Made by a program: the position numbers and the translations under genes. DNA of 64,000 nucleotides from Colwellia sp. (GTDB lineage Bacteria; Pseudomonadota; Gammaproteobacteria; Enterobacterales; Alteromonadaceae): positions 1 through 64,000 of the forward strand of contig NVWU01000008.1 in NCBI GenBank assembly GCA_002733765.1, in the 5' to 3' direction. The notes below the pieces were generated by a model that saw only the letters and a list, made by a program, of their open reading frames with translations, made no database searches and was not told the origin of the DNA. Positions within the stretch are counted from its first letter, which is position 1. Each line of letters opens with the position of its first letter. Below, piece after piece: positions 29,972-63,975 of the stretch.

Positions 29972-30045
29972 TTGGTACTGTAGCAAAGAAAAAACACGGA
30001 ATTGGTGCCTACCAATGAGTATTTCTGATGCTGCTACAGTGCCAA
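29972..30045. repeat. Hairpin-forming intergenic repeat, copy 2, between pfaC and pfaD
   Basis: Outer arms TTGGTACTGTAGCA (29972-29985) and TGCTACAGTGCCAA (30032-30045) pair at 13 of 14 positions plus a G-T pair; an inner hairpin ATTGGT/ACCAAT is at 30001-30016. The middle resembles the repeat at 5811-5894. It lies immediately downstream of the pfaC stop and could act as a transcript stabiliser or partial terminator that lowers pfaD relative to pfaC. Confidence 0.6.
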
Positions 30046-30068
30046 ATGGCAATGAGATTAGCTATTAG

Positions 30069-36000: not shown

Positions 36001-36026
36001 ATACCTACTACAGCAATATTTTCCAT
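30069..36026 (-). CDS. pfaC: PUFA synthase subunit PfaC (KS-CLF-DH-DH)
   Basis: A 1985-residue synthase subunit. Ketosynthase at about 1-460 with active Cys in DAACASSCYSVK and His in ECHATGTPKGD and SNLGHLLTAAG. Chain-length-factor-type second KS at about 490-900, where the Cys position reads SAEENSVYRC and the His motif VEAHASGFSGEN. A Gln/Ala/Thr-rich linker at about 950-1090. Two FabA-like hot-dog dehydratases with HFKGDEVMAGSL (about 1450) and HFHQDPVMPGSL (about 1890). These make the cis double bonds without oxygen. The start at 36026 follows GAGGAAA; the gap from pfaB is 54 bases. Confidence 0.96.
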   Translation of the reverse strand: MENIAVVGIANLFPGSSAPEDFWQQLLKKQDCRSKATREQMGVDPDKYTGKKGDTDKFYCVHGGYIRDFDFDASAFVAADAQNGNGLTAEYLNQLDDLNQWALYVTQQALTDAGYWGSDKLADCGVILGNLSFPTKSSNHLFMPLYHQVVDGALKQLLNKDFQLSHFSDTAISQKNIHADNALVAGYPAALLAKAAGLGGTHFSLDAACASSCYSVKLACDYLHTGKADMMLAGAVSGADPMFVNMGFSIFQAYPANNIHAPFDKNSQGLFAGEGAGMMVLKRHSDAVRDGDKIHAIIKGGALSNDGKGEFVLSPNTKGQVLVYERAYDNAGVDPRDVDYIECHATGTPKGDNVELASMDTFFSRFPREKGNKPLLGSVKSNLGHLLTAAGMPGMTKAIWALNQAKIPATINLNEPLNSKNGYLTGAQMPTETIDWPQKNSLKPRTAGVSVFGFGGSNAHLVLQQPTQTLTPRSGKEAVARAREPLAIIGMDAHFGGAKDLASFKTLIESNGNTFRELPTKRWKGIEKNNEVMNALSLNKAPKGGYVEEFDIDFLRFKVPPNEQDCLIPQQLMMMKVADNAAKDAGLKEGSNVAVLVAMGIELELHQYRGRVNLSTQIEESLLQQGVTLSDEQRETLTNIAKDGVAFAAQLNQYTSFIGNIMASRISALWDFSGPAITLSAEENSVYRCVELAENLFQTSDIDAVIIASVDLAGSVENITLRQHYGKVSVEGKATSNVLSQDQWLVGEGAAAFVVKPESKVNEQQIYASIDSISFANGCDNGAITKAANKALALAGINAAEISEVEAHASGFSGENLAENQALPKIYAGKAISSVKSNIGHMFNASGIASIVKTALILDKRTTVKSSIAINGLGKDESCAHLILSSSKHNHQSAPAPTGKQRPKLIKTIFLGGNSIFDAIITQGQSAEMVSIKQSFIGKALAKVKQGINLSNLTPKVVTQEPIQTNAQAQAQEQVQERTQSITQAKARSKIVTGAQVKSISQATNANKVDVKHQASKEIYQESATHQAFLTTRQIAGQQISKLIEMQANVSAGIPAYTADTQSINATYAPELSVVNSNVPTASVSAVNDHWASKSGFQIKGPDGYNYPPLQLKEQFNQPENIIWDTADLVEFAEGDIAKVFGDEFKIIDSYSRRVRLPTTDYLLVSRVTELEATVNEYKKSYMCTEYDIPVDAPFLIDGQIPWSVSVESGQCDLLLISYIGIDFQAKGERVYRLLDCELTFLEEMAFGGETLRYEIHIDSYARNGEQLLFFFHYDCYVGDKKVLIMRNGCAGFFTDEELKDGKGVIHNDKDKAQFANAVKSTFPALLTRPRDQYDYNDMMKLVNGDVAGCFGRDYDQKGRNPSLKFSSEKFLMIERIINVDASGGHWGLGVVEGQKDLDPKHWYFPCHFKGDEVMAGSLMSEGCGQMAMFFMLSLGMHANMNNARFQPMPGESQTVRCRGQVQPQHNTLTYRMEVTEMGMQPYPYLKANIDIILDGKVVVDFKNLAMMITEQDESSQYPVTLPDNVQLVSAQAVNDVESAAAVTELDERGINPFKHIERPLMKVMSDFDAPKEKGVTPIQHFEAPMVTGQNRVPNQAPFTPWHMFEFATGNISKCFGPDFDVYKGRIPPRTPCGDLQVVTQVVEVQGTRLDLKKPSSCVAEYYVPEDAWYFTKNSVNNWMPYSLIMEIALQPNGFISGYMGTTLVYPEKDLFFRNLDGSGDLIKQVDLRGKTIVNKSALLSTTMAGGMIIQSFTFELYVKDNSKAAQALDSHDLFYKGTAVFGYFGSDALTNQLGIDNGKVTYSWFEDNNTPKSDIEVIDLSNQDLALYKAPTNKPHYKLAGGQMNFIDTVSIVEGGGKAGVAYVHGERTIDATDWFFRYHFHQDPVMPGSLGVEAIIELMQTYALNKDLGKGFTNPRFIAPATLVKWKYRGQITPLNKQMSLDVHITDIIRADGEVRLVGDANLSKDGLRIYEVKDIVLSIIEA

Positions 36027-36080
36027 ACTTTCCTCGAAAAAATTCGTCATACCCGAAGTGTTTTAATCGGATATCTAATT

Positions 36081-44600: not shown

Positions 44601-46459
44601 GAACCTTGACCAGAAAACAGCGCCACAACTTTACCTTCAACCGTCAAACCAGATTGTCGGAAATAAACCCCTGTAGGAACTGACCATTGTTCACTACCAG
44701 CTTTGCTAGCAAACTGCTTAAGTGCCGCTGCTATCATCTTGATTGCTTCAACCGCATTTTTAGCAACAAAACCACAACGGGCTAAATCAGCCGCGGGTGT
44801 TTGTAAAGTATTCTCAGTCACTAAGGCGTTAAACACATACTGCTGAGCTTCACTATCAACACGTAGTTTAGTTTGCCAATCAGTTAAGCTGGCAATCAAA
44901 GCACTTTCATTAACAGCAGTAACTAAAAGTGTTTGCGGCACTGCATTTAAACGGTATTGACCGCTAGCAGTTGGACGGTACTCTTCTAATACCATGTGGT
45001 AGTTAGTGCCGCCAAAACCAAATGAGCTCACGCCGGCACGACGAGGTACACCATCTTCTCTTGCCATCCAAGGGCGGGTTTCATTGTTCAAATACATTGG
45101 GCTATTTTCAATTTCTAGCGCGGTATTAGGTTGATCAATATGAATTGTTGCTGGTAATACTTTATGGTGCAGTGCTAATACTGCTTTGATCATACCCGCT
45201 GAGCCTGCGGCAGCTTTAGTATGGCCAATTTGTGATTTTACTGAGCCTAAGGCGATATGCTGTTTTTGTTCGTTGTCTGTACTAAAGTGTTTAACCAAAC
45301 CACCAAACTCAGCTGCGTCACCCGCTTTAGTACCGGTGCCGTGCGCTTCTATTAAGCCACAAGTGAGAGGATCAAACCCAGCATCATCATAAGCGCGTTT
45401 TAATGCTTTTGCTTGTCCGTCTGGACGTGGTGCGTAAATAGATTTAAAGCGACCATCTGAAGAAGTACCGATACCTTTAAGTACCGCATAAATTTTATCT
45501 CCATCACGTTCAGCATCTTCAAGGCGTTTAAACGCCATCATGCCGATACCTTCACCGATCATCATGCCTTTTGAGTCGTTATCGAACGGGCGAATATCTT
45601 CACCGGTAGTAAACGCTGGCGTTTTTGAGAATGACATGTACATAAATGGTGAGTTATCACAACAAACACCACCTGAAATCATCACTTCTGAGCGATGCTC
45701 TAATAAGTCAGAAATTGCTAATTTAATCGCCGCTAAAGAACCCGCACAAGCCGCATCAACCACACAGTTAGTGCCACCAAAATCGAAGCGGTTAGCAATA
45801 CGACCTGAAATAACATTACCTAACATGCCAGGGAATGAATTTTCTTCCCAACCGATATAGGCTTTCTTGAATTTATCGATGATCATCGCGCGATCTTCAG
45901 CGTCAACACCTGAGGCTTTCAATACTTTTTCTAATATTGGGCCTTGCAAACGAGACGTTAACGGTGAAATTTGCTTTTGACCACCACCAACACCTAAGGT
46001 AATACCAACTTTGTCACGGTCATAACCTGAGCCATCACCAATACCCGCATCATTTAACACGTCACGCGCAACCACTAGCGATAATAACTGGGCGATATCC
46101 GTTAATTCTAAAATATTTGGCGGCAGACCAAATTCCATTGGGTCAAAGTCAATCTCAGGTAAAAAACCACCACGTTTACAGTAAGTTTTATCCGTATCTT
46201 TTGGATTGCTTGAATAATAATCATCAATCGCCCAACGATCACTTGGCACATCTTTAATGGCATCTACTGATTCAAAAATATTATCCCAGTAATCTTCTAG
46301 GTTTTTAGCATCCGCAAAAATTGAGGCCATACCAACAACCGCAATAGGGCACTCTTGTAAACGCGAATTAAATTGCTGTTCATCAGTGATAATTTCTTCA
46401 GCTTTGACTTTTTTAACGCTTGTTGTATTTTGCTTGTTAGCCATAGATTTCTTAACCAT
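38651..46459 (-). CDS. pfaA: PUFA synthase subunit PfaA (KS-MAT-5xACP-KR-DH)
   Basis: A 2602-residue multidomain subunit. Ketosynthase at about 35-480 (DAACAGSLAAIKLA, EAHGTGTKAGD, SQIGHTKAAAGSAG). Malonyl-CoA acyltransferase at about 610-930 (ALFSGQGSQYVNMG, GHSFGELTALWAAG, AFHTPLVGHA). Five ACP domains at about 1225-1710, each with GIDSIKR. Ketoreductase at about 1980-2260 (VSGGAKGVTAHC, FSSAAGFYGNPGQSDYS with the Tyr). C-terminal hot-dog dehydratase region to about 2580. Together with PfaB-E it builds C20/C22 omega-3 acids from malonyl-CoA. Start 46459 follows GGAGATACTTTA. It begins 15 bases after pfaR. Confidence 0.97.
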   Translation of the reverse strand: MVKKSMANKQNTTSVKKVKAEEIITDEQQFNSRLQECPIAVVGMASIFADAKNLEDYWDNIFESVDAIKDVPSDRWAIDDYYSSNPKDTDKTYCKRGGFLPEIDFDPMEFGLPPNILELTDIAQLLSLVVARDVLNDAGIGDGSGYDRDKVGITLGVGGGQKQISPLTSRLQGPILEKVLKASGVDAEDRAMIIDKFKKAYIGWEENSFPGMLGNVISGRIANRFDFGGTNCVVDAACAGSLAAIKLAISDLLEHRSEVMISGGVCCDNSPFMYMSFSKTPAFTTGEDIRPFDNDSKGMMIGEGIGMMAFKRLEDAERDGDKIYAVLKGIGTSSDGRFKSIYAPRPDGQAKALKRAYDDAGFDPLTCGLIEAHGTGTKAGDAAEFGGLVKHFSTDNEQKQHIALGSVKSQIGHTKAAAGSAGMIKAVLALHHKVLPATIHIDQPNTALEIENSPMYLNNETRPWMAREDGVPRRAGVSSFGFGGTNYHMVLEEYRPTASGQYRLNAVPQTLLVTAVNESALIASLTDWQTKLRVDSEAQQYVFNALVTENTLQTPAADLARCGFVAKNAVEAIKMIAAALKQFASKAGSEQWSVPTGVYFRQSGLTVEGKVVALFSGQGSQYVNMGRELACNFPSVMQAAQDMDSEFANAGLGQLTPTTYPIPVFSDDARKAQDEALRLTQHAQPAIGTLSVGLYKTFTNAGFKADFTAGHSFGELTALWAAGVLSEQDYMMLARSRGQAMAAPKDTSVDTGTMIAVVGSPTKVAEDIKDINDISIANYNSNNQVVVAGVTSQIAIAIDELKAKGYKVVPLPVSAAFHTPLVGHAQKPFAAAIDNAKFNQPNVPVYSNGTAKAHSNKAADIKKSLKNHILESVHFNEEIDNIYADGGRVFVEFGPKNVLTKLVENILKEKDDVVAIAVNANPKKSADMQMRQAAVQMAVLGLALNDIDPYCAVKRPLTATKMSPLAMKLTGASYVSAKTKKAFDDALNDGWTVKQATSVPVAVPEQKIVEKIVEVERIVEVERIVYLNADGTVAQPNQVSAPIASDTTGLISSIERSVSQFVDHQQQLLNVHEQYMQGPKDYAKTFDAVLSSQEGGELPESLDRTLGMYHDFQSETLRVHEQYLNNQTDNMTAMLSTSDSPLVEKTVGKAVEKIVAIASPKISPAVQVAQVVTPTQVSTPVAPVVPVVHTPAAPVRTVASAVAMAPIAETASAPSIDLSTLALQNIQTVMMEVVADKTGYPTEMLELEMDMEADLGIDSIKRVEILGSVQELIPDLPELNPEDLAELRTLGEIVNYMKSKAESAAPTADSAPALHLVETSVVTAPAIDLDYIQKVMMEVVAEKTGYPTEMLELEMDMEADLGIDSIKRVEILGAVQETIPDLPELNPEDLAELRTLGEIVSYMQSKVSAAPVVASAPITTTVVNSAPAIDLDYIQKVMMAVVAEKTGYPTEMLELEMDMEADLGIDSIKRVEILGAVQETIPDLPELNPEDLAELRTLGEIVSYMQSKVAPAPVAESSNSDALATDSSAPAIDLDYIQKVMMAVVAEKTGYPTEMLELAMDMEADLGIDSIKRVEILGAVQETIPDLPELNPEDLAELRTLGEIVSYMQSKVAPAPVAESSNSDALATESSAPAIDLDYIQKVMMAVVADKTGYPAEMLELAMDMEADLGIDSIKRVEILGAVQETISDLPELNPEDLAELRTLGEIVSYMQSKVSPTEPTPPGAKAAVPTSDKATEATVNFQGAPSATVELTALSSINKIAQDVTGANALIVDDGTGAAVALSAKLVKAGWSVTALKPNWVTVNSKKTFAKSVNVIEIGNSDKTLDEAQIKDIIDSNEQLDAVIYLQSLDLKGNNRANTIAYPEAAKQGLMLAFVLAKLSKVKAATKARASFVVVTRQGGALGFANNDDSATQVKADVNADLVQAGLAGLVKTINHEWNAGDNSVFCRVVDLSAKLAADKAATIINDELLDIDSSIVEVAHDTDNLSNNIGTRLTLTGVATDSYQLTAGSSIDNNSVFLVSGGAKGVTAHCVIEIAKQYQSKFILLGRSSFDDNEPSWAKGITDEVALKKAAMQALIAAGDKPTPVKVTQFVRPILANREIAQTLNAINAAGGQAQYAAADVTNSTNVAAAVAPITKEFGEVTGIIHGAGVLADKFIEQKTLEEFNAVYTTKIDGLLSLLAATTVENVKHLVLFSSAAGFYGNPGQSDYSIANDILNKTAYRFKALNPNAQVLSFNWGPWDGGMVTPELKRMFNDRGVYIIPLDAGAKLLVSELASVNNRCAQILVGNDLSKDQAGVAVKKPQVSRLNISVKKTLLATNNTFLADHTIGDDQVFPTVCAIAWMRDASEKAYSGYHYQGLENYKLFKGIIFESNSDDNEANEYQIEFNAEVVDDGVRLVVETKISSINAQGKIVFHYGAQLTLVSQRKASPEVNLAIPTSVESAQALYSNGTLFHGPSLQGISEILECNEQGLLLRCQVPAVAVEKQGDFPLSNNGVQSNIFANDLAYQAMLVWVKKELGLGSLPSSTQSWTVYREVTLDECFYLKLTVVKSSGKGKQRGALTADMQLISENNEVLSEIKSAKVTASANLNDLFLPKNKKAM
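41324..42800 (-). repeat. Five tandem acyl carrier protein domains within pfaA
   Basis: Five copies of the block with DMEADLGIDSIKRVEILG, at spacings of about 306-324 bases, separated by Ala/Pro/Ser-rich linkers. Ser in GIDS is the phosphopantetheine site of each. Copies 2 to 4 differ only at a few positions and the linkers of copies 3-4 and 4-5 are almost identical, showing recent expansion or homogenisation. ACP number affects product yield in known Pfa synthases. Confidence 0.95.
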
Positions 46460-50139: not shown

Positions 50140-51180
50140 CTATACTAGTTCATTAAGCGTTGTTACTTTAGCAAACGCTTGTTTTAACGTATTACCATTG
50201 GCATTGCCTTTTCTGGCAGATTCACTCAAATACCGACGAAATTGACGAGCCCCCGCTAAACCATTACACAGACCTAACATATGCCGTAATATGTGCCAGG
50301 CTCTAGGATTACGGTAAGCATTACCTTGCTCAAGCGTTGAACTAACATAAGCATCAACATAATCAGCCATTAAATTAATAACTTCCGTTCGAGAAATAAC
50401 GTCTTTTTCAACACCATAAATTTGTTGATCAGCGGCTGCCAACATATAAGGGCTATTATAAATTTCACGACCAATCATTACACCATCAAGGTGCTGTAAG
50501 TGATTATTGGCCTCTGCGAACGTTTTAATACCACCATTAATAGATATTTCTAACGCAGAAAAATCTTGTTTTATTTGATAGACACGATCGTAATCAAGTG
50601 GTGGAATATCACGGTTTTGCTTAGGACTTAAACCACTAAGCCAAGCTTTACGCGCATGAATAATAAAATGCTGACAACCCGCTTGTGCGACTTGTTCAAT
50701 AAAAGTGTGTAAAAATTCATAACTATCTAAGTCATCAATACCAATACGAGACTTCACCGTAACAGGTACTTTAGTGGCCGCTTGCATCTCATTAACACAA
50801 TCGGCAACTAAGCTAGGTTCAGCCATCAAACAGGCACCAAAACGACCATTTTGTACTCTATCTGACGGACAACCAACGTTAATGTTAATTTCATCATAAC
50901 CATACTGCTCAGCAATTTTAGCGCATTCGGTCATCGCTTTTACATCACTGCCACCAAGTTGTAAAACTAACGGATGTTCCACATTGTTATAAGAAAGATA
51001 ATCTCCCTTACCATGTAATATAGCGCCCGTGGTGACCATTTCGGTATAAAGCACCGTATGCGCTGACATTAAACGGTAAAAATAACGGCAATGACGATCG
51101 GTCCAATCAAGCATGGGCGCAACAGAAAGTCGGTGATCTATAGGATTAAAGGGTTTCATTGGTTTTACTGGCTTTGACAC
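50140..51180 (-). CDS. dusA: tRNA-dihydrouridine(20/20a) synthase
   Basis: A 346-residue FMN enzyme that reduces uridine 20/20a in tRNA D-loops. Motifs: RLSVAPMLDWTDRHCRYFYR, NVGCPSDRVQNGRFGACLM with the catalytic Cys, INGGIKTF and GVMIGREIYNSPYML. DusA-type signature VAPMLDWTDRHCR. The frame opens with GTG 51180 (AAGGTG upstream); ATG 51159 is the alternative. The 5' end faces a prophage integrase, and dusA is a well-known integration target of tyrosine integrases. Confidence 0.95.
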   Translation of the reverse strand: MSKPVKPMKPFNPIDHRLSVAPMLDWTDRHCRYFYRLMSAHTVLYTEMVTTGAILHGKGDYLSYNNVEHPLVLQLGGSDVKAMTECAKIAEQYGYDEININVGCPSDRVQNGRFGACLMAEPSLVADCVNEMQAATKVPVTVKSRIGIDDLDSYEFLHTFIEQVAQAGCQHFIIHARKAWLSGLSPKQNRDIPPLDYDRVYQIKQDFSALEISINGGIKTFAEANNHLQHLDGVMIGREIYNSPYMLAAADQQIYGVEKDVISRTEVINLMADYVDAYVSSTLEQGNAYRNPRAWHILRHMLGLCNGLAGARQFRRYLSESARKGNANGNTLKQAFAKVTTLNELV

Positions 51181-51289: not shown

Positions 51290-52360
51290 ATGGCATCTTT
51301 TACTATTGAAAAACGAGCTAAGGCAAACGGTGATTTTTCTTACCGCTGTAAAATCGTTGTTAAAAAAAACAACAAGATTATACACCGAGAATCTAAAACT
51401 TTCCGCAAAAAAGAGCTAGCTAGAACTTTTGGTAAAAAAAGAGTGTCAGAAATTGAAAGTGATGACTTAGGCATAAAGAAAACAATCCCCCTGAGTAAAT
51501 TATTAGATATGTATATTGAAGATAAACATCTATGGGATAAAACAGGAAGAACCAAGCGCTATGTTATCCAGATGCTCAGAGATTGCGAAATTGCCAAAAT
51601 ACAAAGCAACAAACTTAAAACCAGTGATTTAATAGAACATTGTAAAATTAGGCAAGCGGCTGGAGCAAAGCCAGCTACCGTTTACCATGACGTTTCATAT
51701 TTACGCGCTGTCATGAAAAAAGCTCATCCCGTTTTTGATATTGAAGCTAACACCATAATATTTGAGGAAGCATTACCAACGTTAATTGATATGGGGTTAA
51801 TAGGTAAAAGTGATAAAAGAACTAGACGCCCTACTCAAGTCGAGTTAGAGAAATTAAGAGAAGGCCTAGAGATAAGACAAAATCAAAAACCTAATGGGAA
51901 TGTAAGAATACCTTTCTTGGATATATTAGAATTTAGCATTTTAACTTGTATGCGCATTGGTGAAGTTTGCAAATTAAGGTGGGAAGACTTAAACCGAGAA
52001 CATAAAACCATTATTGTTCGGGATAGAAAAGATCCACGTAAAAAAGAAGGTAATCATATGATAGCCCCGTTATTAGGTGAGTCATTCAATATTGCAATTA
52101 AACAGCCTAGCGATAAAGACTTAATTTTTCCTTATAACCCAAGAAGTGTTTCAGCAGGATTTCAACGTGTACGCAATGATTTAGGTATTGAAGATTTACG
52201 TTATCATGACTTAAGACGCGAGGGAGCAAGCAGGTTGTTTGAACAAGGTTATTCTATAGAAGAAGTAGCTCAAGTTACTGGTCATAGAAATTTAAATATA
52301 TTATGGCAAGTATATACGCAACTATTTCCGCATAAGTTACATGATAAATTTAATCAATGA
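51290..52360 (+). CDS. Tyrosine-type site-specific integrase (dusA-associated)
   Basis: A 356-residue recombinase. The N-terminal arm-binding part ends near 70, the SAM-like core binder spans about 70-170, and the catalytic domain carries Arg in CMRIGEVCKLRWEDL, HDLRR, GHRN and the nucleophile Tyr in VYTQLF (about residue 342). It should insert and excise the prophage at dusA. It is oriented away from dusA and followed by a convergent unknown gene. Confidence 0.92.
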   Translation: MASFTIEKRAKANGDFSYRCKIVVKKNNKIIHRESKTFRKKELARTFGKKRVSEIESDDLGIKKTIPLSKLLDMYIEDKHLWDKTGRTKRYVIQMLRDCEIAKIQSNKLKTSDLIEHCKIRQAAGAKPATVYHDVSYLRAVMKKAHPVFDIEANTIIFEEALPTLIDMGLIGKSDKRTRRPTQVELEKLREGLEIRQNQKPNGNVRIPFLDILEFSILTCMRIGEVCKLRWEDLNREHKTIIVRDRKDPRKKEGNHMIAPLLGESFNIAIKQPSDKDLIFPYNPRSVSAGFQRVRNDLGIEDLRYHDLRREGASRLFEQGYSIEEVAQVTGHRNLNILWQVYTQLFPHKLHDKFNQ

Positions 52361-55058: not shown

Positions 55059-56273
55059 CTAAGAAGATGAAAAATCAGAATTATTAGATTTAAAATTAAC
55101 AGGTAAATCAGGTGTCACTAACGTATCTAACGAGCAATAAACATATTCAGTTTGTTCATCTAATGTAATAGCCGCTTTACAGCTAGTTATCCAATCAACA
55201 CGATAACCTCTATCCACTAAATCCATACTAGTAAAACTCAGCTCTTTATTATCATAATTTGCTGAGAATGCATAAGTAGAATCAAAGCCCCTTGATAACG
55301 CTGTACTACCCGTAAAAACAGAGCCAGTAATAATAGTCGCTTTAATAAACGGCTCTATAGCACCCATTTTATTATGTAACTCGTCAGATACATCATCAAC
55401 AGCAGCATTAGCAATCGAATCACTATCACCGTCAGTAGAAATTTTAGAGGTCTTATTAGAAAGTTTTTGATTATCATCTTCAACAGTTTGAGTAGCCGTA
55501 TTATCTGCACCCCCAAGAATTTTAACATCTGATTTACTAAATAAATAAGACCAAAGAACACCGAGACAAAGCAAAAGCCCAAGTACTTTAGGGTCACGAT
55601 AAAACGCTGTTCTTGGCTCTGAATTTGTGAAAGCTCCCGTTTTTGTCGAGCTATAAAGCGCAAATATTTTCGACGGAACATAGTTAAAATACTTGATTGT
55701 TCCTTGATTTGATTTGGTTGTACCTCTTGAATCTGCTGCATGTTCCACCGTCTTATAAAATCGCCAAAGACCAAGGTTAATATGACGCACGGCAACTTTT
55801 GCCATGTCTTTCATCTCACTTCTAACCTTTGTAATTGATGTTGTTGTAAAAACAAAATCCCAATTATAATGGCGTTGCATATCCCATGCGGTGTCCATAT
55901 CTTCGGGTCTGTCGTCTAGTTCTGCTTGAGCCGTACCGCCAATGTAATTTAAAAGTGCGACATCTTTAGCAGTCCACTTAGGTTTGAATATTCGTTGTAC
56001 TTCATCAATAACAAAAAAAGAGCCTTTAGGTGCCCAGTGAAAAAATCGAGCCATTTTATCTCGACCCGCTTGGCATTCAGTATCAACAAAAATAACCTTA
56101 AAATTCTTATGTACGTTTTTGCGACCGAGCACCTTAATTGCAAGTTGCTTAGAGAACCCACGAATATTAGTGACTAATGTTCTACCCGACTTGATAACCG
56201 GAAGAATATCGTCTTTGATAGCGCCTGATGTTTTGAAAGTGCCATCCGGACCATGATGTATTTTTATACTCAT
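55059..56273 (-). CDS. zot: Zot-family phage assembly protein (gpI-like)
   Basis: A 404-residue Zot-domain protein of filamentous phages. The degenerate Walker A is GPDGTFKTSG near residue 9-18, the Walker B-like FFVIDEVQRIF near 85. A membrane helix (VLGLLLCLGVLWSYLF) near 235 separates the cytoplasmic ATPase part from the periplasmic tail. It drives virion extrusion through the envelope together with a secretin. The start overlaps the DUF2523 stop (ATGA). No pIV secretin gene is seen; the phage may borrow a host one. Confidence 0.9.
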   Translation of the reverse strand: MSIKIHHGPDGTFKTSGAIKDDILPVIKSGRTLVTNIRGFSKQLAIKVLGRKNVHKNFKVIFVDTECQAGRDKMARFFHWAPKGSFFVIDEVQRIFKPKWTAKDVALLNYIGGTAQAELDDRPEDMDTAWDMQRHYNWDFVFTTTSITKVRSEMKDMAKVAVRHINLGLWRFYKTVEHAADSRGTTKSNQGTIKYFNYVPSKIFALYSSTKTGAFTNSEPRTAFYRDPKVLGLLLCLGVLWSYLFSKSDVKILGGADNTATQTVEDDNQKLSNKTSKISTDGDSDSIANAAVDDVSDELHNKMGAIEPFIKATIITGSVFTGSTALSRGFDSTYAFSANYDNKELSFTSMDLVDRGYRVDWITSCKAAITLDEQTEYVYCSLDTLVTPDLPVNFKSNNSDFSSS

Positions 56274-56590
56274 CCGAAAACCCTAAAACCCATGACAAAG
56301 CGGGTAACAAATGCATTAATTAATAAATTAAAACCAGTGATAATATTAAAAAAATTTAACTGAGATACAGTATCTTGAGGTAATCTAGAAAGTGAATTAT
56401 TTATTTGAGTTGAAATATCTAATTGAATTAATATTGATTGGGCTATATCCCAAGAAAAATTCAAAGACCAAAGCATGGCTTCATATCTAAAATAGGTAAT
56501 TTTAATTATTACCCAAGCGTAAAACTCAACAACAAAACCATAAATACCAGAAGTTAAAAACTCATAAATACCAAGTAAAGCATCAAGCAT
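56270..56590 (-). CDS. DUF2523-type minor coat protein (gpVI-like)
   Basis: A 106-residue hydrophobic protein starting MLDALLGIYEFLTSGIYGF. The C-terminal part (LPQDTVSQLNFFNIITGFNL, INAFVTRFVMGF) matches the DUF2523/gpVI pattern next to zot. ATG 56590 has GGAG 9 bases upstream; the frame can be extended by 5 codons. Its N-terminal coding sequence is repeated in the upstream chimeric ORF. Confidence 0.75.
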   Translation of the reverse strand: MLDALLGIYEFLTSGIYGFVVEFYAWVIIKITYFRYEAMLWSLNFSWDIAQSILIQLDISTQINNSLSRLPQDTVSQLNFFNIITGFNLLINAFVTRFVMGFRVFG

Positions 56591-56738
56591 TCTTAATTTC
56601 TCCAAAAATTATAATTGCTGATAAAACCGAAAAAATGAACGTCATAGAAATAGCTACAACATTTGACCATATGTAAACAGCGAAATAATATAAACCAAGA
56701 GTTAAAAAATCATAAATACCAAGTAAAGCATCAAGCAT
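56583..56738 (-). CDS. Chimeric 51-residue membrane ORF made by tandem duplication
   Basis: ATG 56738 overlaps the adsorption-protein stop, and its own TGA (56583-56585) overlaps the DUF2523 start, in both cases as ATGCTTGA. Residues 1-11 MLDALLGIYDF copy the DUF2523 N-terminus, while the end (VLSAIIIFGEIKNA) copies the adsorption-protein C-terminus (VLAAIIIFGGLKNA). Sequences 56553-56629 and 56701-56777 match at an offset of 148. It is probably expressed, having a ribosome site GGAGGG. Two membrane segments are predicted; function unknown. Confidence 0.7.
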   Translation of the reverse strand: MLDALLGIYDFLTLGLYYFAVYIWSNVVAISMTFIFSVLSAIIIFGEIKNA

Positions 56739-58446
56739 TCTTAAGCCCTCCAAAAATTATAATTGCTGCTAAAACAGTAAAAATAAATAATATAATATTA
56801 GATATAAGTAACATTTCATCTTGATATTCAGAAAGACAAACCTCTTTAATGTCACCCATAAAAAAAGCGATTTTATAGCACTGATTAAAAGAGCCGCCAG
56901 AAACGGCAATAGGCTTTATAATTGTATGCATTTCAGTTTTTATATCATCAATACGAGTAGTTAAATCAGATTGAATATCGATGATATCTTGAATATCAGA
57001 TGTGGAATCAAAAGAACCCTGAGCAGTAACAATTTGTTGAGTTAATATATCAGCAACTAAGCTATCACCAGATTGATTAAAAGCATCTTTTAAATCATCC
57101 AACTTACTCCCTAGTGAATCAGTTTGATTAGTAATTTTTTGACCTAACGCATTAGCAGCATTATTAATTGATGAAACAACGTCACCATTCCCATTGCCCG
57201 AACTAGTTCCATCACCCGTACCACCAGTACCACTAGCGCCACAAATCAAATCAAACTCGATTACGTCACCATTTGGACAAATTTTAGTATTACAATTTTC
57301 ATTTATTGAAATTTCTAAACCATTAGGGCAAGTCTTAACAGTTGTAGAACAATCAATATCCTCTTGAATTTCGTCACCATTAGGACATGTTTTTAAACAT
57401 AATGAAAAAGCATCACTATAAACGGTATGAATATTATGAATATCACCGCTTTTACAATGAAGCATTTTTGTTGCTGTAATCCGAACACCGCAACCTGAAT
57501 GCGATGGGCCGCTACTAGATTGAGAACTCTTATAATTAGCGGTACCCAAAGAAAAAGAATCACAAATTGGTTGATTATAATCATCTTCGCCATCACTATT
57601 TAAATAATAACCAAAATTAATGCTATCACCTACATCTACAGAAAGTTGTCGAAAATCATCTAAACTTCTATAATTTCCACTAGCAGAGCAACTCGAAAAA
57701 AAAACACCTTTGTGATAACTTTTACAATCATTTATAGAGCCATAAACATAACGCTCACCATCATTATTAACACAAACACCATCGGTTAACGTTTGACCCA
57801 AAGGACAAGAATTATTTTGACAAATACCCTGAGAATCTAAAGACTTACCAGTTGGACATGTTTTATCAATACATGCAAACGGAGTGAAATCAGGCATTGT
57901 ATTAATCACTGGAACAACAGGATCGTTTAAGCGATAAAACATATAGTTTAAACATTGAGATTCATATTGATTACTATTAATAGTAACGCCAAAAGCTGAA
58001 TATTTGCATCCTGCAAACTCAAAATAACCACTTGAACCCTTTGGGTAGCCCGTTATTTTATCTTTGCCAAAGCTAGCCAATGAATTAGGATTATCAACCC
58101 CGCAATCAGGTTTAACTTCACATTGATACTGAGTTAAATCTGGTAAATCTTCACTAGAATCAGATTCAATACTTGTTCTAGTTAACGTAAAATTATAACA
58201 AGTATTTTCCCAATCTTGCGAAGTGTCTTGAACATAAGAAATATCATACAAACAGCCACTATAACCAAACTTACCAGTACTTTGATATGTTGGTAAATCT
58301 ATCTTTTGAGCAATTTGAAGTGCTGAATTAAGAGCTGAATTACCCTGTAGACAATTGTTTGTATCATCAGCAAAAGCACCAAATGACGTTAACAATATGA
58401 CAATTAAAGAAGTAAAAAGTAAATTATGAAATTTAATCATAAGCAT
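56731..58446 (-). CDS. Phage adsorption/minor coat protein (gpIII-like)
   Basis: A 571-residue exported protein. Signal peptide about 1-26 (FTSLIVILLTSFGAFA). The body is rich in Cys, including repeated CPNG.E motifs (KTCPNGDEIQ, KTCPNGLEIS, KICPNGDVIE). A Gly/Ser linker (SGTGGTGDGTSSGNGNGD) at about 405-425 leads to a helical part with coiled coil, and a C-terminal membrane anchor (LISNIILFIFTVLAAIIIFG). This is the usual gpIII layout: receptor-binding domains, glycine linker, anchor. Met1 or Met3 may be the start; neither has a clear ribosome site. Confidence 0.82.
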   Translation of the reverse strand: MLMIKFHNLLFTSLIVILLTSFGAFADDTNNCLQGNSALNSALQIAQKIDLPTYQSTGKFGYSGCLYDISYVQDTSQDWENTCYNFTLTRTSIESDSSEDLPDLTQYQCEVKPDCGVDNPNSLASFGKDKITGYPKGSSGYFEFAGCKYSAFGVTINSNQYESQCLNYMFYRLNDPVVPVINTMPDFTPFACIDKTCPTGKSLDSQGICQNNSCPLGQTLTDGVCVNNDGERYVYGSINDCKSYHKGVFFSSCSASGNYRSLDDFRQLSVDVGDSINFGYYLNSDGEDDYNQPICDSFSLGTANYKSSQSSSGPSHSGCGVRITATKMLHCKSGDIHNIHTVYSDAFSLCLKTCPNGDEIQEDIDCSTTVKTCPNGLEISINENCNTKICPNGDVIEFDLICGASGTGGTGDGTSSGNGNGDVVSSINNAANALGQKITNQTDSLGSKLDDLKDAFNQSGDSLVADILTQQIVTAQGSFDSTSDIQDIIDIQSDLTTRIDDIKTEMHTIIKPIAVSGGSFNQCYKIAFFMGDIKEVCLSEYQDEMLLISNIILFIFTVLAAIIIFGGLKNA

Positions 58447-59109: not shown

Positions 59110-59424
59110 TTATTTAACTAGTTCGAAATCTACCACGATGTTACGTGATGGATTTTGTGGGTCTGCATCAAGCATTAAATGTACTTTTTGACCGAATGGA
59201 CATTGTGTTTTGAAGCGTTCAAATAAGGCCGCATCAAACAAGGTACTTAGCTCTTGTACGTCATACCCTGCCATTTGAATATTGTGTTGTTCGTTTTGAA
59301 ATGATTCAGCATTTTTTAAGTAGCTGACATTAGCGAATTGATAAGGTTTTGGGGAGCCTGATTTAGTGCTTGTACCTGTACCAAATTTAGCGCCGATTAC
59401 GATTACATTTTGTAGTTTAGCCAT
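59110..59424 (-). CDS. Phage single-stranded DNA-binding protein (gpV-like)
   Basis: A 104-residue beta-rich protein (NVIVIGAKFGTGTSTKSGSP, YQFANVSYLKNAESF, VHLMLDADPQNPSRNIVVDF) of the length and position of inovirus gpV-type proteins, which coat newly made single strands and prevent their conversion. AAGGG ribosome site, 22 bases after rep. Identification rests on context and general pattern. Confidence 0.72.
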   Translation of the reverse strand: MAKLQNVIVIGAKFGTGTSTKSGSPKPYQFANVSYLKNAESFQNEQHNIQMAGYDVQELSTLFDAALFERFKTQCPFGQKVHLMLDADPQNPSRNIVVDFELVK

Positions 59425-59446: not shown

Positions 59447-60859
59447 TTAGGTTGTTGAAAGTTGTTGTGAAAAATCTTGTTCACATTGTTTTAAGTATTC
59501 TTCTTCGGTCGTTGTTATGTTTAGCCGTTGAGGAAGTGAAGCTCTACTAAATGGATCTACAAGACCTTTCAAGAATTTATCTATAATTTCACTGTCTGAC
59601 ATATCACAAAGAACGCGCATCATATTGATAGCTTTGCGAGTTGAAATAACTTGGTTTTCAATGATTCTATCCACCGTCATTGTCATTTTTTTAACAATGG
59701 TTTTAATCACGCTTTGTTCTTCATTTAAAAATGATAATGCTGGGTAAGCACCTGCTAAATATTCGCTAGGTTTAATCATGGTATCGAGTGGAATAATGCG
59801 TTGGCTCGAATGTAGTTCAAGTTCCCAACGAACCCATTTGTCTTTAGGGTCGCCCATTTGAATACCTTTTTCATACACCCGTAAAAGCTTGCCTGACTCG
59901 CGAGAGCCAACGTATAAAGAGCGCCCTTTGTCAGGAATAAAACGAAATTCTTTCTTTAAGTCTTTACGTATTTTTTGATTTAAATGACCCGATTCAATAT
60001 ACATATAGGAGGAAGGACGACCGCCACAGTTAAAACCGCCCTTTTTAGCGAGTTTTCTAGCCACGTTAATTGAGCGTGTTCCGGCATAATCGTCATGTGC
60101 TAAATCAATTCGAGTAATTTTAATTTCAGGAATGTTTTTGATTTCTTGGTATAAACGAGCCATATCTAGTGCATCACAGCCAGTACCCATGAAAGAGACA
60201 TAACAACCAAGGTTTTTACCACCCCATGCGATTATTCCGGCATTAACACCATCAGCATAAAGCGTGGCTGAGTATTGATAGTTAAAACGTCCCATTGGAT
60301 TATTTTTAACTGTCCACATATACGTTTCAGACGTGAAAACATTGTTTAACCGACACACGAAACGTTCAGCTTCACCACAACAAAGGGTATCAACCAAATC
60401 AACACCAATATTGTCTAAAAGATTGTTCAATCGGTCATCATATTTAACCGCAGTATCTACTTCTAAATCGCCTTTTAACATGTCACGTAATTCATAACGG
60501 GCAGCAATTTCATTGTTAACAAGGTGCATTGAATTAAGGCTTAAATCTTTAAAGCGTCTATCTTCATATTCTTTAGTGATTGTTGAGCAAGCATCTTTAT
60601 AACGACTTATTACATTTTGATAACCCGTATTATCAAAAGCATTAAGACCTAAGAATTCTTTATGCATTTTTGACTTAGCATCATTCAAATGACGTTGGCG
60701 AGAATCGCTTTTTGCTGTCTCAATAATGTCACCTTTAAGGCATGCACCAATTTTAGCTAAGTGCTTAATGCGCAATAACTCAGTAGGTGACCAAGTCAGG
60801 GAAAGTGCATCGACTTTGCAAGGGATGCTTTGAATGGTTTTGGGGTTACTGGTCATCAA
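59447..60859 (-). CDS. Phage replication initiation protein (RstA/Rep_trans type)
   Basis: A 470-residue initiator. Conserved pieces: ITRIDLAHDDYAG, GRSLYVGSRESGKLLRVYEK and WVRWELELHS, as in RstA and other Rep_trans family proteins of CTX-like phages. It should nick the replicative form at the origin to start rolling-circle replication. The start overlaps the upstream small gene by 14 bases. The candidate origin with GGTACCAAAA repeats is at 54797-55045. Confidence 0.87.
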   Translation of the reverse strand: MMTSNPKTIQSIPCKVDALSLTWSPTELLRIKHLAKIGACLKGDIIETAKSDSRQRHLNDAKSKMHKEFLGLNAFDNTGYQNVISRYKDACSTITKEYEDRRFKDLSLNSMHLVNNEIAARYELRDMLKGDLEVDTAVKYDDRLNNLLDNIGVDLVDTLCCGEAERFVCRLNNVFTSETYMWTVKNNPMGRFNYQYSATLYADGVNAGIIAWGGKNLGCYVSFMGTGCDALDMARLYQEIKNIPEIKITRIDLAHDDYAGTRSINVARKLAKKGGFNCGGRPSSYMYIESGHLNQKIRKDLKKEFRFIPDKGRSLYVGSRESGKLLRVYEKGIQMGDPKDKWVRWELELHSSQRIIPLDTMIKPSEYLAGAYPALSFLNEEQSVIKTIVKKMTMTVDRIIENQVISTRKAINMMRVLCDMSDSEIIDKFLKGLVDPFSRASLPQRLNITTTEEEYLKQCEQDFSQQLSTT

Positions 60860-61153: not shown

Positions 61154-61411
61154 TTATAGGTTGTGCACTTGCTTCCATTCTGTTTCGGCTTCTGCATAAC
61201 GTTTGTCTATGTAGGTTGCAAGGTCTTCAATTTTTATTAGTGTTGGGCTGCGTTCTGAGTCACGTAATTTAAATGTTGGTATTGGAAAATCGCACCCTTT
61301 TGCTTTTTGCTCTGCTGTTTTAGGTTTAATGCCAAAGAACTCTTCACAAATATTTTTCAGTTCAATAACAGGAGATTGGAACCTAGCGAGCAATGCAAAA
61401 TTTGTATTCAT
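61154..61411 (-). CDS. Pyocin-activator PrtN-like protein
   Basis: An 85-residue DNA-binding protein matching the PrtN pattern: MNTNFALLARFQSPVIELKN, CEEFFGIKPKTAEQKAKGCD, FPIPTFKLRDSERSP, IEDLATYIDKRYAEAETEW. PrtN activates phage-tail pyocin genes in Pseudomonas; relatives are found as early regulators in filamentous prophages. It diverges from the CI/LexA-type repressor, so this gene probably drives rep and structural genes when the repressor is cleaved. Confidence 0.82.
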   Translation of the reverse strand: MNTNFALLARFQSPVIELKNICEEFFGIKPKTAEQKAKGCDFPIPTFKLRDSERSPTLIKIEDLATYIDKRYAEAETEWKQVHNL

Positions 61412-61488: not shown

Positions 61489-61525
61489 TGTGGTAATAGT
61501 AAATCCAAATGTGGAACCATGTCAA

Positions 61526-62185
61526 ATGAATTATGGTAGAAAAATAAAAATTCTACGAGAGTCGCTAAATAAAACTCAACCTGAGTTCTCAGAAATTACA
61601 GGTATATCATTGAGTACATTAAAGAAAGTTGAAGCAGGATTTTCAAATGTAGGTATTTCAGTTATTGATAAAATAATTGCCACTCAGTCACTTAAAAAAC
61701 ATGTTTTATGGTTCATGACTGGAAATGGAGATCTAAAAGTAGAACCAGAAATTGAAACTAATACACGAAATATAAATTTACCTTTTTACGAAGTAAAAGC
61801 ATCAGCTGGTGATGGGGCATTGGTAGAAGCAGAAGAACAAACACATTTAATTAGTTTTGAACCTGAATGGCTAAATAAAGAAATAGGTGTAAATCCTAAT
61901 GATGTATTTTTAATGTTGGTTGACGGTGACAGCATGTACCCAACATTAAAGAACGATGCCATGATTATGGTAAATCGAAATTTTAATGGATTAAGTGACG
62001 GTATTTATGTGATGCGACACGATCACAATCTATTAGTAAAAAGATTACAAATGTTACCGGGCGGCATCATCAAAGTTAAATCAGACAACAACATGTACGA
62101 ACCGTGGGAAATAAACAAAGAACATTTGAATGGTACTGATATTGAATTAATTGGCCGCGTCGTGTGGTCAGGTCAAAGAATGTAG
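61526..62185 (+). CDS. LexA/CI-type phage repressor with S24 self-cleavage domain
   Basis: A 219-residue repressor. Helix-turn-helix at about 10-50 (KTQPEFSEITGISLSTLKKV). The C-terminal S24 peptidase domain has the cleavage site Ala94-Gly95 (KASAGDG), Ser136 in DGDSMYP and Lys172 in LLVKRLQ. RecA-stimulated self-cleavage during DNA damage would induce the prophage. I chose ATG 61526 (MNYGRKIK). The last 22 codons are repeated downstream of the NERD gene. Confidence 0.9.
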   Translation: MNYGRKIKILRESLNKTQPEFSEITGISLSTLKKVEAGFSNVGISVIDKIIATQSLKKHVLWFMTGNGDLKVEPEIETNTRNINLPFYEVKASAGDGALVEAEEQTHLISFEPEWLNKEIGVNPNDVFLMLVDGDSMYPTLKNDAMIMVNRNFNGLSDGIYVMRHDHNLLVKRLQMLPGGIIKVKSDNNMYEPWEINKEHLNGTDIELIGRVVWSGQRM

Positions 62186-62235
62186 AAAATTAATAAACCA
62201 TACTGTTTTACATAGAAATATAAGGAAATACTTAA

Positions 62236-63150
62236 ATGATTCTAAAGGACAAAGAACTACAAAACGTTAAGGCCGCCAATACTATTGCAGGTCAAAAACA
62301 AGAACAAGATATTGCTTTTTATTTACGAAGAGAATTTAAAAATCACCCTAAAGTATTCGTTATTAATGATTATAAGTTTTCATTTAATGATGAAACTGCA
62401 CAAATAGATCACCTCATTGTATATCCATATGGCTTTATTCTTATTGAATCAAAAAGTATAACTGGAGAAGTCACGGTCAATGAGTTTGGCGAATGGTCAC
62501 GCAGTTCTAAAGCTAAATGGTCAGGAATGCCCTCTCCTATTAAACAGATTGAACTACAACAAAAACTACTAAGAGAGTTTTTATATCATCATAGAGAAAA
62601 AATATTGAATAAACTCTTTGGTATAAAGCAACAGTCTTTTGGAAAGCGCTGTTGGAATAATCTTTGTGCCATATCAAGTAATTCAATTATTAATAGAGAA
62701 TCAATACCTAAAAACATATCTGACGTTGTAGTTAAAAGTGAGTTCCTGATAGACAAAATTAATGAAGTAATGAAGCTTGAAAAAAGTTTTTTTGAAAAAG
62801 TCATCATTACAGATACCAGACCTGATTTTAATGATGAAGAATTACAATCTATAACTAATTTTTTAATCGACAATGGATACAAGAAAACAATAAAAAATGA
62901 AACTAAAAAACTAGAAAAAGTCAAAACAAATAATACTGTTTTAAAATGCAAAAAATGTAACGAAGCATCAAACTACACCGCACAAAATGGTCGCTACGGT
63001 TATTTCATTAATTGCAATGAATGCAACACCAACACACCAATGAAGATGCCTTGCAACCAATGCCATAGTAAAAACACGAAAGTGAGCAAGAAAAAAGAAA
63101 AATATACGCTTAATTGTTCAGATTGTGATAATAAATTAGCGATAATTTAA
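62236..63150 (+). CDS. NERD-domain nuclease-like protein with C-terminal zinc ribbons
   Basis: A 304-residue protein. The NERD domain spans about 15-130, with the PD-(D/E)xK-type residues Asp58 (AQIDHL) and Glu71/Lys73 (LIESKS). The C-terminal 75 residues hold four CxxC pairs (LKCKKCNEA, NCNECNT, PCNQCHS, NCSDCDN), i.e. topoisomerase-type zinc ribbons. Predicted DNA-binding nuclease. It lies between the repressor and a duplicated repressor end, with an AT-rich composition, which marks it as prophage cargo. A defence function is inference. Confidence 0.82.
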   Translation: MILKDKELQNVKAANTIAGQKQEQDIAFYLRREFKNHPKVFVINDYKFSFNDETAQIDHLIVYPYGFILIESKSITGEVTVNEFGEWSRSSKAKWSGMPSPIKQIELQQKLLREFLYHHREKILNKLFGIKQQSFGKRCWNNLCAISSNSIINRESIPKNISDVVVKSEFLIDKINEVMKLEKSFFEKVIITDTRPDFNDEELQSITNFLIDNGYKKTIKNETKKLEKVKTNNTVLKCKKCNEASNYTAQNGRYGYFINCNECNTNTPMKMPCNQCHSKNTKVSKKKEKYTLNCSDCDNKLAII

Positions 63151-63171
63151 TAAATGTAGATACAAGTAAGA

Positions 63172-63240
63172 AAAGAACATTTGAATGGTACGGATATAGA
63201 GTTTATAAGTCGCGTAATGTGGTCAAGTCAAAAAATATAG
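63172..63240 (+). pseudogene. Duplicated 3' end of the repressor gene
   Basis: The reading frame KEHLNGTDIEFISRVMWSSQ ending KI stop copies the repressor's last 22 codons (KEHLNGTDIELIGRVVWSGQ ending RM stop, 62117-62185). About 75-80 percent of bases agree. There is no upstream coding sequence, so it is a relic that flanks the NERD gene. Confidence 0.75.
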
Positions 63241-63298
63241 TGGCATAAAAAACCCCATCAGAGACTTTCATTGATCAACCCAAAAGTAATAAAGCGTC

Positions 63299-63703
63299 TT
63301 AATTCGTTTTTTTTGTCGTGACAGGCTGCACTATATGTATTTCTTGCTTCTCCATAAAGCTAGAAATTTTTCCCAGCTGCCCATTAACAATAAACCCAAT
63401 AACAACACAGCCAGAAATTAATGCACCAATAGCGTATGCTAACTTTTTATTGATCTTGATTATTTCAGCATTCGCTTTACCTATCTCAACATTCTGATTA
63501 TCTGATGCTTTTTCAATAAGTTTTTCGATACGAAGAAGCATTTTCTCTGAATGCTCTGCATGAGCTTCGATTGCAGAAATTCGCCCAACAAGATCTGATT
63601 GACTCTTCAATACCCAGTCCAAACGAGCATGTTCGGAAGCACCACCATTAGCTGATGGTTGAGATGATACTGGAGGTTGTGTATTTTTGGTATTCTTAGC
63701 CAT
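63299..63703 (-). CDS. Hypothetical coiled-coil membrane protein, 134 residues
   Basis: A disordered N-terminus rich in Pro/Ser/Gln (NTQPPVSSQPSANGGA), a helical coiled-coil region (ISAIEAHAEHSEKMLLRIEK), one membrane helix (AYAIGALISGCVVIGFIV) and a short tail. Its ATG overlaps the stop of the upstream 90-residue gene, so the two are coupled. No family known. Confidence 0.6.
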   Translation of the reverse strand: MAKNTKNTQPPVSSQPSANGGASEHARLDWVLKSQSDLVGRISAIEAHAEHSEKMLLRIEKLIEKASDNQNVEIGKANAEIIKINKKLAYAIGALISGCVVIGFIVNGQLGKISSFMEKQEIHIVQPVTTKKTN

Positions 63704-63975
63704 TATAATCCCTTATTTTTTAGCCAATCCCAAACAGCCTTTGATTGAACTCCCCAATAAGCATCAAAAGGTACAATTAAGCACGAAATAGAAGTATCAT
63801 CACCAAATAAATCTTGAAAAATGCCTTTAGGTTGAATTGACTCAGCTCCAAAAACTAACCAAGATTTATCGTCCAACTTCAAGTGATTATCAGCGTATTT
63901 GCTTGAAATAAGAGTGTTTAATTTATTAATTTTTTGTTCATTTTTATCTGTCGCTATTACAGCAAAAATTGTCAT
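63703..63975 (-). CDS. Hypothetical protein, 90 residues, coupled to a coiled-coil membrane protein
   Basis: A soluble protein (MTIFAVIATDKNEQKINKLN, SWLVFGAESIQPKGIFQDLF, CLIVPFDAYWGVQSKAVWDW) with an alternating strand-helix pattern. It forms a two-gene unit with the membrane protein downstream. Whether the pair belongs to the prophage or to the host cannot be told, because the right end of the prophage is not placed. Confidence 0.55.
   Translation of the reverse strand: MTIFAVIATDKNEQKINKLNTLISSKYADNHLKLDDKSWLVFGAESIQPKGIFQDLFGDDTSISCLIVPFDAYWGVQSKAVWDWLKNKGL

What the first reader, a model, noticed from the sequence alone, without database searches (positions are those of the whole stretch)
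62117..63240. NERD-nuclease cargo gene bracketed by copies of the repressor 3' end
The last 22 codons of the phage repressor reappear, diverged, right after the NERD + zinc-ribbon gene. The gene therefore looks like a cassette inserted behind the repressor by recombination that rebuilt the repressor end, so it would be expressed from the lysogen like other morons. A nuclease domain plus four CxxC pairs in a lysogenic position suggests defence against other phages or plasmids.
Basis: partly seen in the sequence, partly recalled or inferred. Interest (0 to 1): 0.75.

Follow-up and report, generated by a model that had tools for sequence, protein, structure and literature searches.

The report
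Swappable defence slot beside phage repressor
A filamentous virus living in a marine bacterium's chromosome has a swappable slot next to its control gene; here it holds a probable DNA-cutting enzyme, while related viruses hold other genes there, many of them anti-virus-like and in about half of the cases arranged as integron gene cassettes.

Summary
The 3' end of an S24 repressor (62109-62199) recurs, diverged (70/91 nt; best of 200 shuffles 47), at 63164-63254, behind an intact NERD + 8-cysteine gene (62236-63150). The repressor belongs to a CTX-like inovirus prophage in dusC; attR lies at contig 64778-64818, outside the window. The space from repressor stop to att is an accessory slot. Of 17 related loci, one inovirus carries this NERD gene there, two keep only its start, and others carry different cargo (DRT, GmrSD, TIR, ShosTA, PD-T7-3, OLD-like, NACHT). 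Cleanest case: two inoviruses 97.3% identical over 8.4 kb whose similarity ends at the repressor stop codon. The bracketing repeat is probably not the mechanism: no relative shows it in the stretch held, and the second copy looks like a decayed stub of another phage's repressor. Unexpectedly, 8 of 17 related slots hold integron cassettes (21 attC sites, found with a model trained on other genomes' chromosomal integrons); the window's slot has none. NERD's defence role is inferred. Filamentous-prophage accessory hotspots are known (Vibrio); integron-loaded ones were not found in three full-text searches.

The parts
51101..51123 (+). attL core inside the 5' end of dusC (dusC 50140-51180, minus strand); the matching attR is at contig 64778-64818, outside the window
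   Evidence: 31 of 41 nt match between dusC 5' end and contig 64778-64818; a 23-nt core matches at 19-21 positions right of the cargo in L061, L064, L065, L067, L069, L070, L071, L073 (17-18 matches also occur by chance, one at 63617)
51290..52360 (+). tyrosine integrase of the prophage
   Evidence: Pfam Phage_integrase E 1.5e-20
55059..56273 (-). Zot/pI-like assembly ATPase, inovirus hallmark
   Evidence: Pfam Zot E 1.7e-41; PHROG CTXphi Zot-like E 4e-76
59110..59424 (-). RstB-like protein
   Evidence: Pfam CTX_RstB E 1.8e-27
59447..60859 (-). replication initiation protein
   Evidence: Pfam Rep_trans E 9.5e-25
61154..61411 (-). PrtN-like regulator, divergent from the repressor
   Evidence: Pfam PyocinActivator E 4.9e-18; found in 11 of 17 related loci
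61490..62185 (+). S24 (CI/LexA-like) phage repressor; its 3' half is the conserved left wall of the slot
   Evidence: Pfam Peptidase_S24 E 1.6e-20; PHROG repressor; alignment A1
62109..62199 (+). R1, genuine 3' end of the repressor plus 14 nt
62236..63150 (+). NERD nuclease-domain + four CxxC gene (304 aa), the cargo
   Evidence: Pfam NERD E 5.5e-20; alignment A2; same place in inovirus L134
63164..63254 (+). R2, decayed copy of a repressor 3' end (stop codon 63238-63240)
63299..63703 (-). 134-aa protein, half of a two-gene module
   Evidence: homologue (37%, E 8.9e-19) next to the 90-aa homologue in prophage L129
63703..63975 (-). 90-aa protein, other half of the module
   Evidence: 4 of 395 family genomes match, own included; homologues in L129 and L130

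Best explanation
The stretch from the repressor stop codon to the right att site of a dusC-integrated Colwellia-type inovirus is an accessory slot. Cargo in it is exchanged as a block while the repressor 3' half stays as the left wall (shown by comparison). In this phage the slot holds a NERD-family nuclease with two four-cysteine zinc-ribbon-like units, read in the same direction as the repressor and so probably made in the lysogen (inferred). It most likely works as a single-gene anti-phage or anti-plasmid nuclease (inferred from its domain, its invariant E23/D58/E71/K73, the defence genes that are its alternatives in the slot, and those near relatives of it elsewhere). R2 is the stub of another phage's repressor, left with that phage's own cargo (the 134/90-aa pair) when two inoviruses were joined, probably by deletion between tandem prophages or by illegitimate recombination (inferred).
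For: Two inoviruses 97.3% identical over 8,431 nt differ completely after the repressor stop; one carries the same NERD gene, 68% identical, in a supported clade with the window gene (95/99). Two more loci keep only its start behind the repressor (32/45 and 33/45 nt, 0 of 500 shuffles each; the other 14 loci scored do not stand out). Cargo differs in the other loci; 7 of 15 loci scanned have a PADLOC match below 1e-10 and one more (L061) a Pfam NACHT, while 0 of 10 control genes match. 14 of 25 NERD loci outside the slot have, within two genes, a PADLOC-named defence gene (11) or only a recurrent methyltransferase-HNH gene (3) (queries taken from the same loci, so post hoc). The slot lies inside the att sites. 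In 3 of 17 loci (L066, L068, L073) the phage core is gone but repressor tail and cargo remain. A second integrase behind the att core in L067, and an integrase piece in L071, show repeated elements at this site.
Against: No experiment. The NERD protein has no PADLOC match, and Foldseek finds no solved structure at E <= 0.001. Six of 15 scanned loci have no PADLOC match among the proteins scanned, and only part of the cargo was scanned. 11 of 25 NERD loci outside the slot show none of the defence queries in the stretch held. No att remnant lies in the 13 nt between NERD and R2, so the tandem-prophage route needs a further deletion.
Confidence: 0.7

Rival explanations
1. One reading: the NERD gene is a cassette that inserted behind the repressor and duplicated or rebuilt the repressor end, so R1 and R2 are its boundaries.
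For: R2 begins 13 nt after the NERD stop and the two tails bracket exactly one gene.
Against: The other NERD inovirus has no R2 and no related locus shows a second tail in the stretch held (17 of 17); the NERD stubs in L062 and L068 have none; R2 is about as far from R1 as other lineages' tails are, and decayed.
Confidence: 0.12
2. The NERD gene serves the phage itself (control of replication, competition with co-resident inoviruses, prophage maintenance) rather than host defence.
For: It sits next to the repressor in two inoviruses and was there before in two more loci; a Pf inovirus kinase module is reported to do both jobs (PMC11341870, abstract start and passages seen).
Against: It is dispensable (absent in a 97% identical phage), and relatives outside the slot are solitary or beside restriction-type genes.
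Confidence: 0.2
3. R2 arose by duplication within this one phage and simply diverged.
For: R2 has the right orientation and happens to be in the same reading frame as NERD (its stop lies 90 nt after NERD's).
Against: Only the last 77 coding nt are duplicated, behind a different gene, and the sequence after R2's stop hardly matches that after R1's (8 of 14 nt).
Confidence: 0.12

Closest known systems
Accessory gene hot spot of filamentous and tailless prophages in marine Vibrionaceae (PMC11630473; section 35 in full, abstract and other passages seen)
   Same: One variable locus, often near the prophage border and next to a transcriptional regulator, rich in defence genes, in filamentous prophages of marine bacteria.
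   Different: Here the host is Colwellia-type, the site is dusC with a phage tyrosine integrase, the left wall is defined to the repressor stop codon, and 8 of 17 related slots hold integron cassettes.
Antiviral hotspots of P2/P4 elements and the K139-like hotspot between cI repressor and integrase (PMC9122126; passages seen)
   Same: Swappable defence cargo between a repressor and the integrase side.
   Different: Tailed phages and satellites; the words filamentous and inovir do not occur in its main text.
Integron cassettes as anti-phage reservoirs in V. cholerae and V. parahaemolyticus (summarised in PMC12409362; passages seen)
   Same: attC-bounded cassettes carrying defence genes.
   Different: There they lie in chromosomal or mobile integrons; here in an inovirus slot, and in relatives of this phage, not in the window itself.
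NERD-domain defence proteins (PglW, PMC9009780 one passage; MAD6 model NF047741)
   Same: N-terminal NERD nuclease-like domain.
   Different: Those are kinase proteins of multi-gene systems; this is a 304-aa NERD + cysteine-pair protein for which Pfam lists no kinase (MAD6 match 22 bits against a cut-off of 460).

Membership tests
Inovirus (CTX-like) prophage | Zot/pI ATPase with replication initiator and RstB-type protein | tested here: met
   Pfam Zot, Rep_trans, CTX_RstB
Inovirus (CTX-like) prophage | Integrated between att sites | tested here: met
   dusC core at both ends, attR at contig 64778-64818
Inovirus (CTX-like) prophage | Produces virions | not testable with these tools
   none
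Filamentous-prophage accessory hotspot | Different genes at one place in phages with the same core | tested here: met
   L133/L134, 97.3% identical core, different cargo
Filamentous-prophage accessory hotspot | Enriched for defence genes | tested here: met
   7 of 15 loci with a PADLOC match < 1e-10 versus 0 of 10 control genes; small sample, only part of the cargo scanned, and 2 of the 10 controls (in L064) lie left of that locus's att core
NERD nuclease | NERD domain with intact presumed catalytic residues | tested here: met
   PF08378 72.4 bits, cut-off 22.1; E23, D58, E71, K73 invariant in 21 of 21; that these are the catalytic ones is recalled
NERD nuclease | Cleaves DNA | not testable with these tools
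   none
Known PADLOC defence system | Matches a PADLOC model | tested here: not met
   0 families for the NERD protein and for the 134/90-aa pair
Integron cassette array (relatives' slots, not the window) | attC sites at the 3' end of each cassette gene, one orientation | tested here: met
   21 attC in 8 of 17 relatives with a model trained on other genomes' chromosomal integrons; 10 of 10 in L064 and L133 lie within 8 nt of a gene's 3' end; not checked gene by gene in the other six loci
Integron cassette array (the window's own slot) | attC sites | tested here: not met
   no match in the window or L008

The most novel reading that the evidence does not exclude
Colwellia-type inoviruses use the place behind their repressor as a landing site for integron gene cassettes: prophages carry integrase-less cassette arrays (gene + attC, up to five in a row, in one orientation, in L133 starting next to the repressor stop codon), so filamentous phages would lift cassettes, defence genes among them, out of chromosomal integrons and move them between cells. 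The window's NERD gene would be an older inhabitant of the same slot that was displaced in relatives (L062 keeps the start of NERD with an attC-like site behind it).
Probability: 0.7. Interest if true: 0.78.

Novelty: new variant of a known kind. Interest (0 to 1): 0.62.

Why it matters
It ties together two reservoirs of anti-phage genes that are usually described apart: chromosomal integrons and small filamentous prophages. If inoviruses pick up integron cassettes at a defined point, a sedentary store of tens of cassettes gains a possible route between cells that need not kill the host. The slot is also a place to look for new defence genes; the NERD protein, the 134/90-aa pair and the 370-aa protein of L070 are candidates without a PADLOC name.

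Tried and rejected
Chance repeat: rejected. R1/R2 as general cassette boundaries: rejected, no relative shows R2 in the stretch held. R2 as an att site: rejected, the att core is in dusC. Integron cassette for the window's own NERD: rejected, no attC. A home-made attC scan was too loose: 16 hits against 8.75 expected, several inside genes; it was replaced by covariance models. One search gave 36 rows: the 21, seven weaker matches to the opposite strand of the same sites, and eight elsewhere (three in L071 and two in L067 right of the att core, one further right in L064, one each on the left side of L133 and L134). One of 20 NERD loci outside the slot (L078) also has attC sites. A profile search of PDB sequences gave only weak matches (best E 0.0071, translation factor 2 beta; also Nse4, Frigida, DnaJ). 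Foldseek on the model: 0 matches at E <= 0.001. VIA-align was not available. Relatives of NERD were not found in viral contigs with the single sequence but two were with the alignment. PHROGs has no match for the window's NERD and a weak one for that of L134. L074 (49% repressor identity, none of seven inovirus queries found) may not be an inovirus; L060, L070 and L072 are short contigs. The control is imperfect: its two L064 genes lie left of that locus's att core.

Full report
WHAT IS THERE. The 3' end of the repressor gene (61490-62185) recurs 1,055 nt downstream: 62109-62199 (R1) and 63164-63254 (R2), 70 of 91 nt identical. The best of 200 dinucleotide shuffles reached 47 of 91, and a search of the whole assembly with the repressor finds only these two places. 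Between them lies an intact 304-codon gene with a NERD domain (Pfam E 5.5e-20) and four CxxC pairs.

WHERE IT SITS. The repressor is that of a CTX-like inovirus: integrase 51290-52360, Zot 55059-56273, RstB-like 59110-59424, Rep 59447-60859, PrtN-like 61154-61411. The prophage is in the 5' end of dusC (50140-51180). The dusC core recurs at contig 64778-64818 (31 of 41 nt), about 780 nt past the window's end. A 23-nt core, matched at 19-21 positions, lies right of the cargo in eight relatives (L061, L064, L065, L067, L069, L070, L071, L073); matches of 17-18 also turn up by chance there. In the short contig L070 the order is repressor, cargo, att core, integrase, so the slot belongs to the phage. 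NERD, R2 and the 134/90-aa pair are therefore inside the prophage.

THE SAME SITE IN RELATIVES. The S24 half of the repressor was searched in 39 genomes of the genus (12 with a match at E <= 0.001, own included) and in 395 of the family (11 at E <= 1e-30, own included). Fifteen places were taken with flanks (L060-L074); an IMG/VR scan gave two more (L133, L134), so 17 related loci. Genes differ behind the repressor from locus to locus; L072 is too short to tell, and a few cargo genes recur (a DUF2726 protein in L061 and L066, a 133-175-aa protein in L063 and L066). Named cargo: GmrSD N-terminal domain (L060), NACHT with SNaCT5 and DUF2726 + zinc ribbon (L061), DRT6/4-type reverse transcriptase and a RelA_SpoT protein (L062), OLD/GajA-like ATPase (L065), a cold-shock protein (L066), PD-T7-3 and endonuclease I (L067), three TIR proteins (L068), ShosT/ShosA and a weak Panacea match (L069), DUF4062 (L071), Panacea protein (L073), ATPase (L074). 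No name came out for the proteins scanned of L063, L064, L070 and L133. In PADLOC, 7 of the 15 loci of which I scanned at least one cargo protein have a match below 1e-10 (L060, L062, L065, L067, L068, L069, L074), two have weak matches (L066, L071), six none (L061, L063, L064, L070, L073, L133). Ten genes taken right of the cargo stretches as controls gave 0 matches; two of them (L064) lie left of that locus's att core.

THE CLEANEST COMPARISON. L133 and L134 are 97.3% identical over 8,431 nt, and the alignment ends at the repressor stop codon. L134 then has a NERD gene, 68% identical to the window's and starting 41 nt after the stop; L133 has five other genes in the stretch held. L134 has no second repressor tail in its 2,271 bases behind the repressor. 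The window and L134 NERD genes form a clade (95/99). L062 and L068 keep only the start of the NERD gene (about 13-16 codons) behind the repressor: 32 and 33 of 45 nt match the window gene, 0 of 500 shuffles reach this in either, and none of the other 14 loci scored stands out. So NERD is an old inhabitant of the slot. L062 and L068 may share one truncation event; L133 lost or never had the gene.

WHAT R2 IS. Against R1, R2 has 8 changing and 5 silent codon differences; relatives with similar total divergence have mostly 2-5 changing and 6-12 silent (L072 has 7 and 9, the distant L074 12 and 4). R2 changes four residues of IGRVVWSGQR, which is unchanged in all 15 relatives of that call. 0 of 17 related loci have a second tail in the stretch held behind the repressor (488 to 12,743 bases). 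I read R2 as the dead stub of another inovirus's repressor, still followed by that phage's cargo. In support, L066, L068 and L073 have lost the phage core but keep a repressor tail and cargo right next to dusC, and L067 has a second integrase behind its att core, L071 a piece of one, so repeated elements and core loss both happen here. Against: no att remnant survives in the 13 nt between NERD and R2. The order of events is inference.

THE NERD PROTEIN. 50 of 395 family genomes, own included, have a relative at E <= 1e-6. An alignment of 21 keeps E23, D58, E71, K73 and all eight cysteines without exception. The predicted model (pLDDT 83.6, pTM 0.65) places E23 in the first long helix and D58, E71 and K73 in the following strands, as in PD-(D/E)XK nucleases (this topology is recalled). 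Foldseek gives no match at E <= 0.001; the weak ones (E 0.02-0.2) include the nucleases Can2 and Bax1 but also RNA polymerase and initiation-factor zinc ribbons. Of 25 NERD loci outside the slot, 14 have, within two genes, a PADLOC-named defence gene (11: type IV methyl-directed restriction helicase, HEC-06, AbiL, type I restriction, DRT3) or only a methyltransferase-HNH gene that PADLOC matches weakly (3: L076, L089, L140); 11 of 25 have none of the queries in the stretch held. The queries came from these loci, so the count is post hoc and has no control; the helicase taken from L079 recurs strongly in seven others (L076, L081, L085, L086, L088, L090, L091). The gene has no PADLOC model.

INTEGRON CASSETTES IN THE SLOT. 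In six slots all cargo ORFs are on the minus strand (L061, L062, L065, L066, L067, L068), and many gaps between cargo genes form hairpins. They contain attC-like sites. To reduce circularity I took 19 attC sites from eight integron loci (seven genomes from which no slot locus was taken), each with an integron integrase nearby, built a second covariance model and searched the slots: 21 sites at E <= 3.4e-6 in 8 of 17 relatives: L061 3, L062 1, L063 1, L064 5, L065 3, L067 2, L071 1, L133 5. The stronger match of all 21 has one orientation relative to the phage. In L064 and L133, 10 of 10 sites end within 8 nt of the 3' end of a minus-strand gene, the anatomy of integron cassettes (recalled). 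The slots examined add up to 63,180 bases, the window's included; 301,679 bases of NERD loci outside the slot gave two sites, both in L078. The window and its right flank gave none. In the genus, 31 of 39 genomes have an integron integrase above the curated cut-off, against 0 of 14 control genomes, and 39 of 39 have matches to the first attC model at E <= 0.001 (at most 100 candidates scored per genome), so donors are at hand. The window's own genome has integrase matches in two pieces on one contig (C26) and 21 attC matches. In L133 the first attC begins next to the repressor stop codon. In five of the eight loci (L061, L064, L065, L067, L071) an att core lies right of the array, so the cassettes are inside the element; in L062, L063 and L133 I found no right att core. 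Whether the phage packages them is not known.

LITERATURE. Filamentous prophages of marine Vibrio have an accessory hot spot near the border, often beside a regulator, with defence genes (PMC11630473: section 35 in full, abstract and passages), so the slot itself is a known kind. Inovirus toxin-antitoxin and superinfection-exclusion genes are described in PMC6813254 (passages). Integron cassettes as anti-phage stores are summarised in PMC12409362 (passages). Insertion of cassettes outside integrons (attG) I saw only as a reference title and in abstract starts. Three searches for integrons or attC together with filamentous phage, prophage defence or inovirus (12, 4 and 1 papers listed) showed no title or abstract start about integron cassettes in filamentous phages. 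Most of the listed papers, among them the review PMC11389934 that holds all three words, were not opened, and only open-licence PMC papers are covered.

VERDICT. Observation confirmed. The window's gene is a plausible but untested single-gene defence nuclease. The surprising part is the integron loading of the same slot in relatives.

Noticed in passing
L061, L062, L063, L064, L065, L067, L071, L133 (cargo slots): Integron attC sites between minus-strand cargo genes of inovirus loci; 21 found with a model trained on other genomes' integrons.
   Followed up: yes
63299-63975; L129:13393-14033; L130:7600-7863: A two-gene module (about 90 aa + 123-134 aa) shared with L129, a prophage that looks Mu-like by its ORFs (not tested); the 90-aa gene also occurs in prophage L130, where the neighbour of like size gave no match. 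No Pfam, PADLOC, NCBIfam or PHROG match; an exclusion-type function is a guess.
   Followed up: partly
L076, L079, L081, L085, L086, L088, L090, L091: NERD homologues within three genes of a PLD-ResIII-DUF3427 helicase, several also with a methyltransferase-HNH gene, in changing orientation.
   Followed up: partly
L066, L068, L073: Phage core lost; only repressor tail (and integrase pieces in two) and cargo kept beside dusC, as if the cargo were retained for the host.
   Followed up: partly
56528-56807: A 132-nt stretch at the end of the 571-aa ORF is repeated (81%) in the next small ORF; possible duplication of a membrane tail of a coat protein.
   Followed up: no
L008:4180-4506 (contig 64180-64506): Small minus-strand ORF made of tandem copies of a TGAQKNPDGTWVCGGAY-like unit, between the cargo and attR.
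   Followed up: no
28228-46459: Four large minus-strand ORFs (557, 1993, 856, 2602 aa) of sizes that fit a polyunsaturated fatty acid synthase cluster; recalled, not tested.
   Followed up: no
61490-61760 versus relatives (alignment A1): The repressor's DNA-binding half differs between relatives while its S24 half is conserved.
   Followed up: no
L078:10726-10832: attC site directly behind a HEC-06 gene that lies next to a NERD homologue outside the phage slot.
   Followed up: no
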